A stretch of DNA of 64,000 nucleotides from Cliona cf. orientalis (taxonomy: Eukaryota; Porifera; Demospongiae; Clionaida; Clionaidae): positions 5,704,001 to 5,768,000 of the forward strand of contig OZ005702.1 of assembly GCA_963930775.1 (NCBI GenBank). The letters are read 5' to 3'. How positions within the stretch are numbered: the stretch's first letter is position 1; each line of letters starts with the position of its first letter. Below, piece by piece: positions 41,501 through 51,096 of this stretch. The position numbers were made by a program, and so were the translations under genes. The notes under the pieces were generated by a model. It worked only from the letters and a program-made list of their open reading frames with translations, did no database searches and was not told where the DNA came from.

Positions 41501-41804
41501 TTGCTATGAAGACTTACATGTACAATGTCGAATATATTGCTGAGCATAACAACATAACACTTCAGGATATTTCAATCCGTGGATCGTAATAAATTATTGT
41601 CATAGATGAAAAAGGTTGATAATAATTATTACAATATTTTCTCTCTTCCTCTCTCAGCTGCACATGGAGTATGTTAGTGGAGGGTGCATCTCTAACCTGC
41701 TCAGAAATCCATTCTGTAGACCAATAATATACATGTATGGAGAGGTAAGACATCCACCAAGGGCTTATCGACCGCCGAAGGCGGGAGAGGGCATGTAACT
41801 ACGT

Positions 41805-42619
41805 ATAATTATGTACTGTGTAACCATCAAAATTCAAACGCTCGGGCCGGATATACTATAAATAGTTTGTAACTATTCCAGTCGAACCGCACGTGACTCG
41901 ATAAACGTTCCTATCTCGAGATATAATTTTTCACGTGAATCGTATCTACACAAAATTTACCGATTTAGCTAACAGAGGCGGGTGGCTGTTTTGTGGTAGT
42001 ACGCACGCGCGCTTCAATTATGCACGTCCAGACCAGGAATGCGGATGCACATAGCATGCACAAACCTAATGCACGGACAAACACGGAAGTGTAGTCCATA
42101 GAAACCATACTAGACAAAACGGCAGCTGCTGTTGACTATTTGCGGTCTCCTTGATGAAGCTTGGAACATTAGCGTAACTCAAGTAAGTACCACTCAAAAC
42201 CACCATAGATAGGTAGATAATAGGTTAAATCAATAGACTGAAGTAACAAATTTTGTGTCCCACTCCACTGGGGGGAAAAATTCCAGGTTATACTATCATT
42301 CCATTCTGCCCTCTGGTCCTAACCCTGAACAAAGTGACATGCTCAAAAGTAAGTGAATTGTACAATAATAATAGAATTATTATCCATGCTTTAGTATTAT
42401 ACAAGTACTCATAACAATAATATTATTACTGCAAAAGATAATCATTAAAAAAAAAACAATATAGACTTGACATCTTCTCTCCTGCATAATGTAAAGCATA
42501 AGATTCATCAAGTAAATAAATAATTGTACTGTAAAAATGACTACGTAGATACACTGCACTGTTCATGCATGCATACATGGAAAACCACAACTGACTGGTT
42601 GTTTTAATTCACTAGGAAA
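41805..42619 (+). other. 5' leader of the 8.8-kb element
   Basis: No frame of note. A possible untranslated exon ends at the donor CTCAA/GTAAGTACC (42184), and an acceptor TTCACTAG (42615) lies four bases before the ORF 1 start codon, suggesting a leader intron. Confidence 0.4.
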
Positions 42620-45391
42620 ATGAGCAACAGGAGGAAACAGAATGTACACGTAGTGTCCAAGTTAGAAGCACAGCAGCACCATTCCAAATACCATCCAAAA
42701 CTGAATTGCACCAATTGTGTCTTGTGTGGCCATGCAATAACAGCAGTTGCTCATTTTGGAGGTTGGGGTGCTACCGAGAAACAGTTCGTTGAAAAGCATT
42801 TAGGAAAGGAGCTAGCCCCTAGCAGCTGTATATGCAAGGCCCATCATATGGAAGCTAAACGGCACTCCTTACATGACGACTACATACCCAAGTGGAAAAA
42901 AACAGCACAGCCAGCAAAAACAGTACTAGGATGCAGTTACCCACATTGTTATGTAACTGCTAGTGAGGCTAGATTGATCGAACCTTCTTTTCAACCCCCC
43001 GCTATACTGAAGCCAGCACTAAATATCAGTTCAAGCGTAGACCACCTCGTATTGTGCCCTAAACACTATGCTGAGGCACAGAGAAAGCTAGCACCCCCAC
43101 AGTGTTGTGCAAGCTGTGGGATGAAGCCAAAAAGGGGAGCGAATTTCACTAGACACTGTCCAGACGCACAAACAATTAATTCGGTGCTATTAGAAAGTAC
43201 AGGCAGTAGTCACAAGTTAGCAGCCAATGACAAAATCTGCTTAGACTGCTACAAGAGTAATGTAGCAACCCTCACGTCACTGGGAGAGGTACTAACACCA
43301 AATGAATTGTTGGTAAAGGACATCTCCACATGGGAGCATGAACTAATGCAAGCAAGTAATATGTCTCAACTTACCAGAGCAACTCTAAGCACTGTTGTTT
43401 ATGTGGCAAAGGAACTCCTTCCCCAGCATGCTTTGCTTCTTCCTCATGTATCAACCATATTCCGGGAGGTATATCAGTGTTCAGAAGCATCACTTTCAGA
43501 GGACCTTCTCCTGGAAGTTGGGGAGGGCACAATCAAGTTCACAGCACAGTGGCTATTAAACCAACTAGTTGTATATCTACATAGATATATGAGTTTCAAA
43601 TGTGTTCACAAGAAGGTTGGTACACTTATCTTCCGTAAAGGAGGGGATACTCTAGTTAGCCTTTCATGGGCGATGGGAAAGCAAAAGGTTTGTACCCATG
43701 ATGAAGCCATACTAGAGAAAAGATCCCATAACATCTCAAGCACTGAGCAGATTCTAGATGAGGCAGGAAATGTACTTAATTCCCTCTTACAAAAAGAGGT
43801 TAAGAAACTATCTGACCACAAGTTAACCGATAATCCAACTGCGTTTAACATCAGCAGCATAATCAACCAAACTGACCCACAATTATGGCATTTCTTAAAA
43901 CTAGCTACAAGTGGCAAGAACGATCACAAGTCTACAATTGACCACAGAAAACAAAATAGGCAATACTACATCCTATGCCTACTGATGTACTGTACTAATT
44001 TTAATAAGCCAACACCACTACACATCTTGTTAGCGGATGCTGTCGAGATGCATGGGGGATCTAGGATATTGATCAAGCTACTAAACCAGTTTGGTATCGT
44101 ATCATCTACAGATACACACGACAGATTTGTAACTGCAATAGCAGAACTACAACGAAACAAGTCAGTATGGGATGAGCTCCCAAGAGAAGTGTTTACTATA
44201 TGTAGTGCAGACAACTTCGACATGCTGCAGAGTCATGCAGCAGTTTACTGTGGGGATCAGCATCGAAGCTATCATGGTACAACGGTCCAGATTGTACAGC
44301 CAATGCCTCAGCTAGTACTAGAACAATCAAACGCCAGTCATTCCCATACAGGAAGCAAACAGTCCTCTCCTTCCCCACCTCTCTCCAGCCAGTCACTCGG
44401 TAGTTCACTCGCACACTCTCAGTCCCAGGGAGCCGGCAGTTCACTCTCACACTCTCAGTCCCAGGGAGCCGGCAGTTCACTCGCACACTCTCAGTCCCAG
44501 GGAGCCGGCAGTTCACTCGCACACTCTCAGTCCCAGGGAGCCGGCAGTTCACTCTCTCTCTCTCAGTCCCAGGGAGCCGGCAGTTCACTCTCACACTCTC
44601 AGTCCCAGGGAGCCGGCAGTTCACTCGCACACTCTCAGTCCCAGGGAGCCGGCAGTTCACTCGCACACTCTCAGTCCCAGGGAGCCGGCAGTTCACTCTC
44701 ACACTCTCAGTCCCAGGGAGCCGGCAGTTCACTCGCACACTGTCCAACCAGGGTGATCTCACTTGCTCCCTTAGGATCAGTCAATGAGATCATTACTCTC
44801 CCTCAACGTCATTCGCTTGAGCCCCTGGGAGCCGGCAGTTTACTCACTCTCTCTGAGCTACTAACTTCCATTAAATCACGAGGAAGTCCCCATCACCCAG
44901 ACGAAGGAGTATTTACAGGACATGATATGAATCCATGTGTTCCGGATCATCTGTCTGTAGCCACTGAACCGAATACAGGAGCATACCTTCAACCAAACAT
45001 GACTCCAATGTCTGTGTCTCCCAACTGCTCACCTGGTATGGACTCTCCAATGCAAGTAGACATACACACACCACCTCAAATTATAAGTCACCCATGTGCA
45101 GAGGAGTCACCAATGTGTTTAAGCACAAAACGTAAACAACCACCTCAAAGCTCACCGCTTATGTGCAATGACAAGAACAAAAAGAAGCCGAGAACTATTA
45201 CCATCAGGGAGTTAAAGTGCAGTAGTAGTCAACAGTCCATACTTACATCTACATCAGCAACTTGCCCTTCTACATCGCTGACAATAAAACACTTTATGGA
45301 AAGTGAACAAGAAAAAACAGAACGCGAGTCGGCTGAGTTAAATCTCTATCTTAACATGATGAGTACTCATGCAAAACATACGAACACCTGA
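42620..45391 (+). CDS. Element ORF 1: Cys/His-rich protein with 12-residue repeats
   Basis: A 923-residue frame whose product I recognise only as a member of a multicopy uncharacterised family of cnidarians, sponges and fish. The first ~200 residues hold Cys/His clusters likely to bind zinc (NCTNCVLCG at 29-37, [13 protein letters not shown] near 75, [15 protein letters not shown] near 160). A central conserved helical part includes [20 protein letters not shown] and [18 protein letters not shown] Ser/Gln-rich stretch at about 593-708 is ten imperfect [12 protein letters not shown] units, and a basic KNKKKPRT is near 852. It ends 26 bases before ORF 2, whose family counterpart is usually continuous with it, so ORF 1 and ORF 2 are probably one split or spliced gene. 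The ATG fits an adjacent splice acceptor. Confidence 0.7.
44396..44745 (+). repeat. 36-bp coding minisatellite in ORF 1
   Basis: About ten units of 36 bp (GCCGGCAGTTCACTCGCACA then CTCTCAGTCCCAGGGA) are almost identical, differing at one or two sites. The unit length keeps all three frames open, so a 188-residue antisense frame also appears; that one is an artefact. Confidence 0.92.
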
Positions 45392-45417
45392 TAAACATAA
45401 AGCACCTATACGGACCC

Positions 45418-47553
45418 ATGTTACAAAAATTATTGATTTTTCCAGGAGACTGGCACACACTCGCCAACTTTCAACCAGTTTTAATGAAGGCTTACTATAA
45501 TGCCGGTTTAAAAGAGATAGCAATGGCCTCTGGATTTAGAGGAGAGACTTTAAACTCCCTTGAAAAATGCTCCCACTTCAAGAGGACTCACAATTTTTTG
45601 CTACAAGTATGGGAAGCATTATACCAGCAAATGCTAACTGCTTACACAAAAGCAACACCCAGTTCTGAATCACTTACAAAGTCATTGCATGATCTGTTGA
45701 ATAAACATGGGGAGTCATCTACTGAAATTCTCAAACATGCTGAACAACTAATAAACCGAAGTGACAACTATAACAAGTTCTTATCTTTCGTTGAAACTTG
45801 CTCAGAACAAGATGATACATGGAAATTTTGGGCAAACTTTGTGCTCCATGATTGTGTATCATATATTGGGCTGTATCTAGGGATAAGAAACAACAAGTGG
45901 GACTTAAGACTAGCTAGCCTCAAGATGATGGCTCCTCTCTTCACAGCCTTTGATAGGGTACACTATCAAAAGCTCATCCCACATCATCTTGCTGACTTGC
46001 AAAACTTCCCAGATAAAATTCTGAAATCTTTTCAAGCAGGAGCATTTGCAGTCAGTTTGACGGGCAATAAAGGGCATTCAGTTGCACTTGACGAGGCCCA
46101 CGAAATGTGTGTTAACAAAGACATGAAGGCTGCCATTGTTAGACCAACTAAGGCATATCTGCAGAAGACATCACTCTTTTTGAGGTACAGAATTGCAGCA
46201 TACAAGGCTCTCATTAAACAAGTCTATCCACCCCCAGGGGATATCAAAGAACCAGAAGACACTTTGCTATGCAAGATTAAGCACAGAAATGAAAATGTCA
46301 GTGCCATGATGAAATGTATTCAGGAGTTTAATCTATTACCACCAAATATACCATCAAATCGTGGTCTCATTAATGTTTTCAGCGGTACAGTAGCTACACC
46401 TGAACAGCGGCATGACCTGCTTAACTTTCGTACCATTGGCTACAATCAAATGATCCTTTATATTAAGCAGAGAATCCTGAAAGTGCCAAGTACATCAGCA
46501 CCTGTTAGACAGCAGAGGTTGCTTACTTTCAGTACAAACCAAAAAAAGAAGAAAAGATTGAATCATAAAGAGCGAGAAAGTAAACAAATGACAAAATGCT
46601 TACGGCAAAGATTAGCTTGGTGCAATCGAACTGGCCAAAGTTATGATCCTACAACCGAACAGTACTCTGTCTACCCAAGAGCTATTTGTGATGAAACTGG
46701 AAATCCTAACAAAGGCACCAAAGCTTCCTGGACTGACAAACTAAGGAAAAGATATGAGTTAGCCACCCCTCCAGTAGCACTTGACATCCTACCTACAGGC
46801 TGGGTACCTGAAGCTGTCATAATCGATGGGATGTTTCTAATACAGTGTGCTCCATTGCGACAAACAGCTACAATAAGCAGGTATGCAGAAATGCTCTTCA
46901 GCAGGTTTATTCTCAGTCACTTTGACAATGGGGCAGTGGAAGTTCATTTAATCTTTGATTCACCCAGTGTACAACCATTTAACCCAAAACAAATGGAAAG
47001 AATGAGGAGAGACAACACACATACGGATACAAGCAACCACGAGCACATTTGCTTTACTCCATCCAGTAAAATTCTCAGTACTAGCTGGAGGACACTTCTA
47101 GAATGCCGAACATGCAAGCAATCCATTACTGCAGCTATATCGCTAGCATACTTGCAAATAGCAAATGTAAAGTTAGCTGCATATCATAAGCTAATCATAG
47201 CTGGAAGCCTCCCAGATACATGGGAGATTTCCGGATGCAATCCACCTCAAATCCGATCAATGTACAACACCAATGCCGAGGAGGCTGATATGAGGATCTG
47301 GCGCCATGCATACCAGAGCAAGGCAACTAAGATATTGATCTATTCACCTGATACAGACGTCTACAACATTGGTATGTCACTAACTTCAATAACCTCTCAT
47401 CAAGATTGTATTGTTCAAATCAATCTACCACACACAAGGGAACAAAAGTTTATAAGTCTCACTAACCTGCTAAAAGCATTGGACAATGATCCTGATCTTG
47501 CCGGTATTCCCAGAAAGCTCTTGGCTAACATTTTTCAAGTTTTCAGGGTGTGA
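45418..47553 (+). CDS. Element ORF 2: FEN1/XPG-like nuclease, N-terminal part
   Basis: A 711-residue frame. The first part (IFPGDWHTLANFQPVLMKAY, GFRGETLNSLEKCSHFKRTH) is a conserved block of the same uncharacterised family as ORF 1. From about residue 465 it has the acidic signature of 5' FEN/PIN-like nucleases: EAVIIDGMFLIQ (first Asp), NAEEADMRIWRHA near 620 (Glu/Asp pair) and ILIYSPDTDVYNIG near 643 (two Asp). The next FEN-type block, SGCDYVSFFSGLGKAAFL, is encoded one frame away in ORF 3. A 1-base shift at about 47543 (GTT-T-TCA) separates them. The reading upstream of the ATG stays open for some codons, so the true start may lie before 45418. Such nucleases cut DNA flaps or bubbles; the role here is unknown. 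Confidence 0.7.
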   Translation: MLQKLLIFPGDWHTLANFQPVLMKAYYNAGLKEIAMASGFRGETLNSLEKCSHFKRTHNFLLQVWEALYQQMLTAYTKATPSSESLTKSLHDLLNKHGESSTEILKHAEQLINRSDNYNKFLSFVETCSEQDDTWKFWANFVLHDCVSYIGLYLGIRNNKWDLRLASLKMMAPLFTAFDRVHYQKLIPHHLADLQNFPDKILKSFQAGAFAVSLTGNKGHSVALDEAHEMCVNKDMKAAIVRPTKAYLQKTSLFLRYRIAAYKALIKQVYPPPGDIKEPEDTLLCKIKHRNENVSAMMKCIQEFNLLPPNIPSNRGLINVFSGTVATPEQRHDLLNFRTIGYNQMILYIKQRILKVPSTSAPVRQQRLLTFSTNQKKKKRLNHKERESKQMTKCLRQRLAWCNRTGQSYDPTTEQYSVYPRAICDETGNPNKGTKASWTDKLRKRYELATPPVALDILPTGWVPEAVIIDGMFLIQCAPLRQTATISRYAEMLFSRFILSHFDNGAVEVHLIFDSPSVQPFNPKQMERMRRDNTHTDTSNHEHICFTPSSKILSTSWRTLLECRTCKQSITAAISLAYLQIANVKLAAYHKLIIAGSLPDTWEISGCNPPQIRSMYNTNAEEADMRIWRHAYQSKATKILIYSPDTDVYNIGMSLTSITSHQDCIVQINLPHTREQKFISLTNLLKALDNDPDLAGIPRKLLANIFQVFRV

Positions 47554-48382
47554 CTATGTATCATTCTTTTCTGGGTTGGGCAAGGCAGCATTCCTGAATG
47601 CTTTCTATCAGTACTCGACATTTATTACTGGTGGCCAAGAAGACGGTTATCTGAGTGATAACAGTGGGGAGAGAGAGGTTAGGGAGGGCTTTCATGCATT
47701 CATAAGGCTAATTGGCACCCTCTACTTCAAGAAGCACTTGTCAGCTTTCGTGGTTTTGAGGAATGTACAGACACCCGTTCAGCTGTTTAACTCTACAAGT
47801 GGCAAAACTTTAGACACAAGGCACCAAAAGTGGTACAATGAAATACGTGGAATAATTAGTGACCGTATATGTACAGAAGAAGAGCGTGTGCCCTCATACT
47901 CATCCATGTGGCGACATTGGCTGAGGTCATGTTGGATCGTCAAAATGTGGCAAAATTCACTAATGGTGGATGTGTATGCTAACCTTCCAAATCCAGATGA
48001 CAGTGGATGGACTAAGGGTGGCGATAGATGCTACCGGGTCGACTGGGACTCATCACAGCACCAAACAGAAGTGCAATATACAATCAACTTTCTCACCAAG
48101 GGCTGTTCCTGCAAAAAAGGTTGCAAAAATAATCAGTGTAGCTGCCGAAAAAATGGTCGTGAGTGCGGCCCAGGATGTCAATGTCAAGGCTGTACGAACG
48201 TGGCAATCAGAGTCCCTGAAGCCTATGAACATGGAGCGGCAGAGCATCAGCAAGCTGAAGATTCTGAATCAAGCAGTGACTCAGATAGTTCTGTAATAAC
48301 CAGCTCTGACGAAGAAAGATACAGCACTGAACTAATCACTGATACTGATTTTATGCATGGAGAGGTCTCAGTATTGCTGTAA
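47543..48382 (+). CDS. Element ORF 3: end of FEN-like nuclease + CXC zinc domain
   Basis: The frame begins meaningfully at SGCDYVSFFSGLGKAAFLNA (47543), which matches the GCDY...GIG helix-hairpin-like block of FEN1 nucleases, and ends at 48382. The ATG at 47486 is out of frame with the coding trend and unlikely to be the start. After YKDRICT-like helices, CSCKKGCKNNQCSCRKNGRE and CGPGCQCQGCTN (about 48106-48213) form a tesmin/TSO1-type CXC domain, a zinc-binding DNA-contact module. The tail is acidic (SSSDSDSSVITSSDEE). It is very probably the C-terminus of the ORF 2 protein, joined by frameshift or after a sequence correction. Confidence 0.7.
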   Translation, partial: SGCDYVSFFSGLGKAAFLNAFYQYSTFITGGQEDGYLSDNSGEREVREGFHAFIRLIGTLYFKKHLSAFVVLRNVQTPVQLFNSTSGKTLDTRHQKWYNEIRGIISDRICTEEERVPSYSSMWRHWLRSCWIVKMWQNSLMVDVYANLPNPDDSGWTKGGDRCYRVDWDSSQHQTEVQYTINFLTKGCSCKKGCKNNQCSCRKNGRECGPGCQCQGCTNVAIRVPEAYEHGAAEHQQAEDSESSSDSDSSVITSSDEERYSTELITDTDFMHGEVSVLL

Positions 48383-50498
48383 TATACCATGCTTATCACG
48401 AGACACAAGGTACAGGTAGCTACATGTATGTTATCTTAGGTTGCTGTAGTCATTATTACTGTGTTGGCCATTCTAATCACCTCTCATGTACTACTATCAT
48501 AATAATCGACCTATTGCACAATGTGCAAAGGACACTGTAGTCAGTAATTACCTGCTACATGCCAAAAATTTCTCGAAATTTAAAAATAAGCGACTTACAT
48601 ACACGTATCGCCAAAATGTCGGAAAAACCTCTTTGCTTCTAATCGTATACACGTCATGAATGATACAAATAGCTGCTATGCTTATAGATCATAACAGATG
48701 CAATCTAGATTGCGCTCACTCTATTCTATTACAGGGGTAAGGCAAAGCGAGCCCCACATAAAATTTAATCATAAGATTTCACTACAATATTATGCACCTA
48801 TCAATGTCAAGCCCCACTATCCCCATAGGGGCGAGGGTGGGGGTAGGGTGGGGATTTGACACCCGAGAAGTTCAAAGTCTCCGCCCCCTGGGCCAAAATT
48901 ACAGGAAAATCCCCCTATTCCATAGGGGCTGTGTATTGACTTCGCCTTGCACAATAACAAATGGTGTATTAATGCACATGTGCAATAACTGCACACTAAG
49001 CATGATCAAATGCCCCTCCCATCCCCTACTGGGTCAAATCCCCTACCCATTAGGCCGAAATTTGCGTCAATGGACTTTCATATGCCCGACCCTCGCCCCT
49101 ATGGGGGGTAGTGGGGCTTGACATTGATAGGCGCATTATGTATGATACTTCATCTACACGTTTACCACACAAAGAGAGAGTGCACACATTAGCTGGTTTC
49201 TATGTGATTTAGATTCAGTATACCCTCCCTGCACACGTACTGTAGAGCACGAATATTCTCCTGCCAAATCAAGAAGGCAAGGATTACAAAAATGCTTTTA
49301 TGAAGCACAGAAACATGCTCATGTGGCACCCCAGAAACTGATTTAGGCTTATGCATGTACTACAGTGAGCTTGGATCCCCAATTAAAGCACCCCAACACA
49401 TGTCTCGAGTGTGCACACATGTAAGGCCACTCCAGTCACACTTTTGGTTATGATACCTAGGCCCTGCTTGAAAGCCAGTTTTGGCGATTTCCTGATTCTC
49501 AGTATTGAAATTCTTGTGTACGTATACCAACATCTATTCAACGATGGAACAAATCCGTAACGCACATGCATTCACACTAATATTTTCATAAGAGCAACAA
49601 ATATGATGCAAAATTTGTTGCTAAAAATAAAAAAAAAGTGTGTCCAATGAAGAGTACACAAGTTACGGCTCACCAATTCGAAACATCCGGGTAGCCATTT
49701 TTTACTGCGTGGTTTGTTGACAGCGAGAACACGGCAGGGACCGAGTAGTTTTCCTTCATCGGCGTAGATATCGTTGGACACGTTCCTTTTTATCCTTCTG
49801 GCACCACCAAACCTATCCCAAACACCTTCTGGGTTGTAGAGAAAACAGTGTTTTCAGGCACACTCATATTCGCACTAGCGTCATTTCGACGGTTACAAGT
49901 TACTTCCGGGGAAAAAACAAAACGTTGTAAAATTGGACGCGTGCGGTTCGACTGATTCGGAGTTATACGATGTGAGGGAAGATTTACGGAGTTAACGTTA
50001 GGGGGTGTGGTTATTCTGGCAACGTGACAAGGCAGAGCTATATAGCTGGAGATGTCGAGCAGGAGTCAGGGCCGGCCACCGTAGGAGTCCTTTAGTTTCC
50101 ACTCCGTCGCCTTTACGTGTGGCCTCTGGACGAGTTGTTAAAAAATATCAACGAATTCGAGCGCGATCATCACCTCTCAGTGACAATGTACGAAGGAGAT
50201 TGTTCGCTAAGATCGGCGGTACATTCCAGAGTAGTGCGATGTCAACGATGGGCCACGAAGACGACTGTGAGATCGTGGCTACTGCCTTCAGGCTCACCTC
50301 CAGAGTGCTGCATTTCGATCTAGCTACGTCCTAGACAGCCACATGGCTCTAGATCAGAATCCGCGGACCGCGGTACCAATTACTGGGCTGGGCCAGACTG
50401 ATATTCTGCGCGTGCGCATAGATGCGGCGCCGGTAGGGCGCTTATATCCGGTTTGCGGTAAGTACTAAATATAGACACGGTTTGAATTTTGATGGGTC
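48383..50498. other. 3' region of the 8.8-kb element
   Basis: Apart from the nested MITE at 48794-49134 this 2.1 kb has no recognised coding region. A GC-rich stretch at about 49.9-50.45 kb near the right TIR, with CGCGTGCGCAT, could hold a promoter reading inward or outward. Confidence 0.4.
48794..49134. mobile_element. 341-bp MITE nested in the 8.8-kb element
   Basis: Ends GCACCTATCAATGTCAAGCC and GCGCCTATCAATGTCAAGCC are inverted and run on for about 45 bp (ATAGGGGCGAGGGT). The flanks share ATTAT. Confidence 0.8.
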
Positions 50499-51096
50499 AC
50501 GTAGTTACATGCCCTCTACCGCCTTCGGCGGTCGATAAGCCCTTGCATCCACCATGCATGCACACAAGGATGGCTTATTCACGCATGGACTACAACAATG
50601 TACATGTACATATGAGCAAGTATGCTATGATGTATGTACCATTAATTTTTGTGCTCACAAGATTCCATATAATATGGCCTTAACTTGCATGTAATTCAAA
50701 CAAAGAGCAGCATATAATTGTACAAACGGTAGTATTAAATTTTTGGCTAATTACATACATGTACATGCATAGGAAGCATATATTTCACGTGTACATGTGT
50801 TTCTATAAATCCCCCCCCCTCCCACCCAAACACACTCTCCCCCAGACGCCGTGTCACTACACTAAGCAGTTACTGGAGGCTCTGATCATGAGCTATCTAC
50901 ACTCACAAGGAATTGTCCACAATGCACCTTTGACCTTCGCTTGTGTTCCTCGATGTGGGCGGAGTCAAGCTAGGAGGATTTAGCATCATCAAAAGGTACA
51001 CGTAGTGATGCTTAACATGTACACGTACATGTTGACTGGCACTGGGCTACATGATCTGACTAAGAGTGTATGATATGAAATTTTTTTCCTCCACAG

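What the first reader, a model, noticed from the sequence alone, without database searches (positions are those of the whole stretch)
41751..50552. An 8.8-kb inverted-repeat element whose cargo is a FEN-like nuclease with a CXC domain, and no visible DDE transposase
Seen directly: 47-bp TIRs with one mismatch, a second subterminal inverted pair, a CATCCAC duplication, insertion inside a GCN2 intron, and frames with IIDG, EEADMR, SPDTDV and SGCDYVSFFSGLGK in the order of FEN1/XPG acidic and GCDY motifs, then a tesmin/TSO1-type CXC domain. Established: those motifs mark PIN-fold flap nucleases and a zinc DNA-binding module. Inference: this is an autonomous DNA transposon of a type whose mobilising enzyme may be a FEN-like nuclease, or a gene family that travels inside a TIR unit. 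I know the protein only as an uncharacterised multicopy family.
Basis: partly seen in the sequence, partly recalled or inferred. Interest (0 to 1): 0.88.

Follow-up and report, generated by a model that had tools for sequence, protein, structure and literature searches.

The report
Broken transposon nested inside smaller transposon
What looked like one strange 8.8-kb mobile element is a decayed copy of a large DNA transposon, probably of the Academ type (a cut-and-paste enzyme that also carries a flap-nuclease-like domain), that landed inside a small, unrelated 0.7-kb transposon, so the odd combination is a nested insertion and not a new kind of element.

Summary
The 47-bp TIRs with the 7-bp CATCCAC duplication bound a ~0.7-kb MITE; 16 of 20 fetched elements with such ends have exact 7-bp TSDs. 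The "subterminal pair" (41879-41893, 49940-49954) bounds a separate 8,076-bp transposon flanked by a 4-bp duplication, ATTC. Without it the outer 708 bp match solo MITEs end to end, one with 1 mismatch in 700 ungapped columns. A sibling elsewhere has its own 4-bp TSD. Six own-genome relatives have uninterrupted frames of 1,698-1,849 aa; 12 of 18 loci scanned show CAGTC-type TIRs plus exact 4-bp TSDs. Their protein carries a conserved D/D/E triad (DUF6589 region) upstream of the FEN-like motifs and CXC, so a DDE transposase candidate exists. This copy is broken: the second-D segment is missing and the frame changes before GCDY. Published traits (DDD/E transposase, nuclease, 3-4-bp TSD) fit AcademX.

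The parts
41751..41757 (.). outer 7-bp target-site duplication CATCCAC, left
50546..50552 (.). outer 7-bp target-site duplication CATCCAC, right
41758..41878 (.). left part of the outer MITE (TIR 41758-41804)
49955..50545 (.). right part of the outer MITE (begins with the second ATTC; TIR 50499-50545)
41875..41878 (.). inner 4-bp target-site duplication ATTC, left copy
49955..49958 (.). inner 4-bp target-site duplication ATTC, right copy
41879..49954 (+). inner transposon, probably AcademX type, 8,076 bp
41879..41893 (.). inner TIR, left, CAGTCGAACCGCACG
49940..49954 (.). inner TIR, right, CGTGCGGTTCGACTG
42620..45391 (+). ORF 1: Cys/His-rich N-terminal part and first catalytic D candidate (ADNFD, D codon 44210-44212)
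   Evidence: codon position read
44398..44741 (+). 36-bp tandem repeat, 9.6 copies, coding GAGSSLxHSQSQ, in the insert between the first and second catalytic segments
45362..45373 (+). approximate junction where the segment with the second catalytic D (GDxKTY) is missing; the relatives' match resumes at about 45373 (KTYEHL)
45418..47553 (+). ORF 2: DUF6589 part (GDWH at 45445-45456; catalytic E candidates in DEAHE, 46090-46104) and first half of the FEN-like domain (IIDGM D 46825-46827; FD D 46957-46959; EEAD 47278-47289; DTD 47350-47358)
   Evidence: codon positions read
47486..48382 (+). ORF 3: SGCDY (from 47543, in another frame than ORF 2) and CXC cysteine cluster (about 48098-48201)
   Evidence: codon positions read
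48789..49139 (.). a third, smaller inverted-repeat element inserted in the 3' part of the inner transposon

Best explanation
The locus is a nest of transposons. A ~0.7-kb non-autonomous element with 47-bp TIRs and 7-bp duplications inserted first (shown). A DNA transposon, most likely of the AcademX type (41879-49954), then inserted into it at ATTC, duplicating those 4 bp (shown). Its protein, in relatives one open frame of about 1,700-1,850 aa, joins a Cys-rich N-terminus, a DDE transposase split by a long insert (D in S-x-DN-x-D, D in GDxKTY, E in DEAHE), a FEN/XPG-like nuclease domain and, in most of the long relatives aligned, a C-terminal CXC cluster (order shown; folds inferred). Most likely the DDE domain cuts and joins the CAGTC ends with a 4-bp stagger, and the FEN-like domain trims or cuts the other strand or a flap during excision or gap repair (inferred). 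The window's copy cannot work as it stands: the second catalytic D segment is missing and the nuclease frame is broken before GCDY.
For: Inner TIR 15 of 15 and ATTC on both sides. Joined flanks (one ATTC) align over their whole length, or all but 2 bases, with solo MITEs L019, L020, L022 and L024: 16/684, 19/675, 1/700 and 16/683 ungapped columns differ (gaps not counted), and AACTATTC stands at the join in all four. Elements with these ends: exact 7-bp TSD in 16 of 20 fetched; 13 of the 20 (L026-L038) share only the terminal ~50 bp with the window. Sibling of the inner family, C7:5004616-5010379, TSD TCCT. 12 of 18 loci (window + 17) have CAG[TC]C-type TIR pairs, one mismatch allowed in the first five bases, and an exact 4-bp repeat; none of the other 17 of 29 candidate pairs has one (chance about 6e-22 under a 1/256 model). 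Six own-genome frames of 1,698-1,849 aa without stops. Conservation in a 137-row alignment, gapped rows left out of each count: D1 68/72, D2 109/110, E 135/136; FEN-type acids D or E 125/127, D 121/123, E 111/112, D 111/112, D 106/110, D 108/109, D 102/106. dN/dS between L039 and L040: 0.146 overall, 0.127 in the FEN-like part. DUF6589 over its cut-off in ORF 2 and in 5 of 6 relatives scanned. AcademX: nuclease and 3-4-bp TSDs; AcademH: helicase and 9-10 bp (PMC10045372, passages). Academ is listed among DDD/E superfamilies (PMC9587614, passage).
Against: No Academ reference sequence was available, so membership rests on architecture and TSD length. FEN homology is not significant by profile: no XPG match in Pfam at E up to 5 for 6 proteins, no FEN1 hit in the PDB sequence search (to E 1, to E 10). 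hhalign against 48 archaeal FEN1 sequences: FEN-like part 23.2, but the linker control 25.4; a deeper set 21.4, reached by 3 of 30 column shuffles. In that forced alignment FD-x-P and S-x-D-x-D are in register, but the EExD and first (I-I-D/E-G) motifs are not. In the first acidic position E (76) is commoner than D (49) of 127. The CXC (TCR) matches are all below Pfam's cut-off, and L041 and L051 gave none. Six of 18 loci gave no CAGTC pair with a 4-bp TSD; L058 and L043 show a family-like end on one side only.
Confidence: 0.86

Rival explanations
1. One reading: one 8.8-kb autonomous element with 47-bp TIRs whose mobilising enzyme is the FEN-like nuclease, with no DDE transposase.
For: The 47-bp TIRs and the 7-bp TSD do flank the gene.
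Against: Solo copies of the outer element lack the gene, with AACTATTC uninterrupted at the join; the gene unit occurs elsewhere with other ends and 4-bp TSDs; a D/D/E triad is conserved in relatives.
Confidence: 0.02
2. The inner element is a DDE transposon with a nuclease domain but of a superfamily other than Academ.
For: No Academ sequence could be compared; Pfam knows the core only as DUF6589; the paper that defines AcademX was not held.
Against: Nuclease-like domain plus 4-bp TSD matches the published pair of AcademX traits.
Confidence: 0.12
3. The FEN-like region is not a flap nuclease but another acidic (PIN-like or unrelated) domain, perhaps structural.
For: No significant profile match to FEN1 or XPG; two of the motifs out of register in the forced alignment; E in place of the first D in 76 of 127 sequences.
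Against: Seven acidic positions in FEN order, each kept (the first as D or E) in at least 96% of the sequences that have a residue there, and purifying selection. Weak hhalign alignments put G-x-DY...GIG and FD-x-P and S-x-D-x-D in register.
Confidence: 0.18

Closest known systems
AcademX lineage of the Academ superfamily of DNA transposons
   Same: D/D/E triad, additional nuclease-like domain, 4-bp TSD (nuclease and 3-4-bp TSD of AcademX from PMC10045372, passages; DDD/E from PMC9587614, passage; XPG type of the nuclease recalled).
   Different: Sequence membership not tested. This copy is defective and sits inside a MITE. Whether published AcademX proteins carry the same CXC cluster or the elements the CAGTC termini was not checked (a Cys8 zinc finger is recalled).
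AcademH lineage
   Same: Same superfamily in the literature.
   Different: AcademH carries a helicase and makes 9-10-bp TSDs; here no helicase match among the three ORF pieces at E up to 1 and 4-bp TSDs.
FEN1/XPG flap nucleases (archaeal FEN1 used as comparison)
   Same: Order of acidic motifs and G-x-DY...GxG.
   Different: No significant profile similarity; first acid often E; EExD motif not in register in the forced alignment.
MITEs (outer element and the 351-bp element at 48789-49139)
   Same: Short, TIR-bounded, many similar copies.
   Different: The 7-bp TSD of the outer one is not assigned to a superfamily here.

Membership tests
AcademX (Academ superfamily) | 3- or 4-bp target-site duplication | tested here: met
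   ATTC in the window; 12 of 18 loci exact 4 bp; sibling TCCT
AcademX (Academ superfamily) | encodes a DDD/E transposase | tested here: inconclusive
   D/D/E conserved 68/72, 109/110, 135/136 but fold not tested; second D segment absent in this copy
AcademX (Academ superfamily) | encodes a nuclease (XPG type, recalled) | tested here: inconclusive
   motifs conserved; no significant profile match
AcademX (Academ superfamily) | sequence similarity to known Academ proteins and termini | not testable with these tools
   no Repbase sequences; Kojima 2020 not held
AcademH (Academ superfamily) | helicase and 9-10-bp TSD | tested here: not met
FEN1/XPG nuclease family | profile match to XPG_N/XPG_I | tested here: not met
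   three window pieces (E up to 1) and 6 relatives (E up to 5)
FEN1/XPG nuclease family | seven active-site acids in order | tested here: inconclusive
   seven conserved acids in the expected order, the first E in 76 of 127; their mapping to FEN1 residues is recalled and only partly in register by hhalign
Outer element as one 8.8-kb transposon | gene always between the 47-bp TIRs | tested here: not met
   solo copies without the gene, gene units with other ends

The most novel reading that the evidence does not exclude
The FEN-like domain is an obligatory part of the transposition reaction: the DDE domain cuts one strand at each end and the fused flap nuclease cuts or trims the other, fixing the 4-bp stagger. 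That would be a division of labour inside one polypeptide not shown for any eukaryotic transposase that I know of (recalled, no search made for this).
Probability: 0.25. Interest if true: 0.6.

Novelty: new member of a known kind. Interest (0 to 1): 0.3.

Why it matters
It removes a false lead (a transposon with no DDE enzyme, moved by a flap nuclease) and replaces it with a clean nested insertion with empty sites. It also points to a genome with at least six relatives with uninterrupted frames, where the role of the fused nuclease-like domain can be tested; the literature already links nuclease or helicase to TSD length in Academ (PMC10045372, passages).

Tried and rejected
Rejected: a spliced intron between ORF 1 and ORF 2. 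The segment with the second D, taken from nine relatives (a tenth query, P0003, begins after it), finds no further match better than E 0.28 in the 8,076-bp element, so it is absent, not spliced round.

Rejected: viral carriage. No relative was confirmed among 89 pattern hits in viral contigs.

Led nowhere: NCBIfam scan of 4 proteins (no match); PDB sequence search with the two alignments (only CXC proteins, E 0.028 and above); FEN1 profile comparison (not above shuffles; a control region scored higher); a search for standalone relatives of the FEN-like part (212 hits, the 120 listed all without a Pfam domain except that P0096 had been listed before, also without); paper searches for Academ with XPG (none held) and for DUF6589 (none held); passages of PMC10799480, PMC12730594, PMC3627910, PMC9143410, PMC5753468 and PMC9783078, which gave no definition of AcademX, and a term search in PMC10027918 that found nothing; PMC3627910 mentions a RecQ helicase in Academ. 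TIR pairs with a 4-bp TSD were not found for L043, L050, L051, L052, L053 and L058; L050 gave a pair with a 3-bp repeat.

Left out: of 20 fetched 9-10-kb loci, L046-L048 were not scanned for TIRs, because they were fetched as end matches and not by coding frame. In the 137-row alignment were 6 own-genome frames and the proteins and 72 of at least 600 aa; P0001 (the window's own ORF 2), shorter proteins and the other own-genome copies were left out. 48 FEN1 proteins came from 51 fetched loci. Other DUF6589 copies in the genome (122 matches, 102 of 338 candidates scored) were not followed.

Odds changed on re-checking: the rival that the FEN-like region is no flap nuclease went from 0.15 to 0.18, because two motifs are out of register.

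Full report
What is there. The 'second subterminal inverted pair' is the key. It reads CAGTCGAACCGCACG at 41879-41893, with a perfect complement at 49940-49954, and ATTC stands directly outside both ends.

Two elements, not one. A search of the own genome with 300 bases from 41751 split at this point: some places match only up to base 128, others only from base 129 or 141, and many match the TIR alone or little more. Removing 41879-49954 and one ATTC leaves 708 bp. These align with solo elements L019, L020 and L022 from end to end and with L024 from base 3; L023 (86%) and L025 (93%, bases 23-697) are more diverged or shorter. Of the ungapped columns, 16 of 684, 19 of 675, 1 of 700 and 16 of 683 differ in L019, L020, L022 and L024, and the join reads AACTATTC followed by GGAGTT or GAAGTT. 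Of 20 fetched elements with such ends, 16 have an exact 7-bp duplication, one (L038) has one mismatch, and three (L023, L024, L025) are worse or cut short; L026-L038 share only the terminal ~50 bp with the window. L021 is a 5.9-kb member without an ORF of 120 aa. So the 47-bp TIRs belong to a MITE family with 7-bp TSDs.

The inner transposon. A sibling at C7:5004616-5010379 has the same kind of ends, with TCCT on both sides; its match to the window begins at the inner TIR, not at the MITE end. A scan of 18 loci (window and 17 own-genome relatives found by protein) for CAG[TC]C-type ends, one mismatch allowed in the first five bases and at least 11 of 15 complementary, gave 29 pairs; 12 pairs, each from a different locus, have an exact 4-bp repeat directly outside. 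Under a simple 1-in-256 model that has a probability of about 6e-22. The 12 include L049, with AGAG, whose protein is 23% identical to that of L039. Six loci gave none: L043, L050, L051, L052, L053 and L058.

The protein. In relatives the three frames are one: six own-genome frames of 1,698 to 1,849 aa have no stop. In the alignment the order is: Cys/His-rich N-terminus, S-x-DN-x-D, a variable insert (in the window holding a 36-bp repeat), GDxKTY, GDWH, DEAHE, then I-I-D/E-G/A-M, FD-x-P, AEE-A/T-D, SPDTD, GCDY...GxGK, then the CXC cysteines, which L050 lacks. Counting only rows with a residue in a 137-row alignment: 68/72, 109/110 and 135/136 for the D/D/E triad, and 125/127 (D or E), 121/123, 111/112, 111/112, 106/110, 108/109 and 102/106 for the seven FEN-type acids. 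Between two own-genome copies, L039 and L040, dN/dS is 0.146 overall and 0.127 in the FEN-like part, so that part is under selection with the rest. DUF6589 is matched over its cut-off by ORF 2 and by 5 of 6 relatives scanned; the sixth, L051, is below it.

This copy is broken. Matches to relatives resume at about KTYEHL (45373), just after where the second catalytic D should stand, and the segment before it, present in nine of the ten query relatives, has no match better than E 0.28 elsewhere in the element. Just before GCDY the frame changes, so ORFs 2 and 3 are separated.

How it probably works. Shown: two independent insertions, duplication lengths of 7 and 4 bp, and the domain order. Inferred: the DDE domain cuts and joins the CAGTC ends, and the FEN-like domain processes the other strand or flaps. 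The literature gives AcademX a nuclease and 3-4-bp TSDs and AcademH a helicase and 9-10-bp TSDs, and says that the difference seems related to these enzymes (PMC10045372, passages). PMC9587614 lists Academ among DDD/E superfamilies (passage). PMC4455052 (passages) cites the original description and says that Repbase sorts non-autonomous elements by TSD length and by the first 11 terminal bases; by the same criteria the outer and inner elements differ. That the AcademX nuclease is of XPG type is recalled, as are the FEN1 residue numbers.

Limits. FEN kinship was not significant by profile: no Pfam XPG match up to E 5 in 6 proteins and no FEN1 in the PDB sequence search. Against 48 archaeal FEN1 sequences hhalign scored 23.2 for the FEN-like part, 15.2 for the DDE part, 19.6 for the N-terminus and 25.4 for the linker, so a control scored higher. 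A set of 170 FEN-region sequences scored 21.4, which 3 of 30 column shuffles reached. G-x-DY...GIG and FD-x-P and S-x-D-x-D fell in register; the first motif and EExD did not. No Academ sequence was at hand for a direct membership test. A verdict of AcademX is therefore probable, not proven.

Verdict. The locus is ordinary in kind: a decayed transposon, probably of the Academ type, nested in a MITE, with a third small element inside it.

Noticed in passing
48789-49139: A third inverted-repeat element (36-nt arms, 92%) inside the 3' part of the inner transposon. The genome search (40 of 197 candidates scored) lists many near-full-length copies at 84-99% identity; TTA on both sides of TGCACC...GGCGCA suggests a 3-bp TSD (by eye).
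   Followed up: partly
L021:103-6031: A 5.9-kb member of the outer MITE family with an exact 7-bp duplication and no ORF of 120 aa; no coding partner for the 7-bp-TSD family was found, and no search for one was made beyond this.
   Followed up: partly
44398-44741: 36-bp tandem repeat, 9.6 copies, in frame in ORF 1 within the insert between the first and second catalytic segments; the C7 sibling (L047) shows overlapping matches there too.
   Followed up: no
whole genome G000: DUF6589 has 122 matches (102 of 338 candidates scored), the strongest at places not in the list; whether they carry a nuclease was not checked.
   Followed up: no
L039, L040, L045: These relatives carry inverted repeats of about 400 bp close inside their CAGTC ends, unlike the 15-bp TIRs of the window's copy.
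   Followed up: no
L060, L061: Right ends of two further copies of the window's inner family at C13:2709487-2709786 (97%) and C9:5758093-5758386 (82%); their left ends were not located.
   Followed up: no
P0019: A relative is filed under 'uncultured Candidatus Thioglobus sp.', probably host-animal DNA binned with a symbiont (inference).
   Followed up: no
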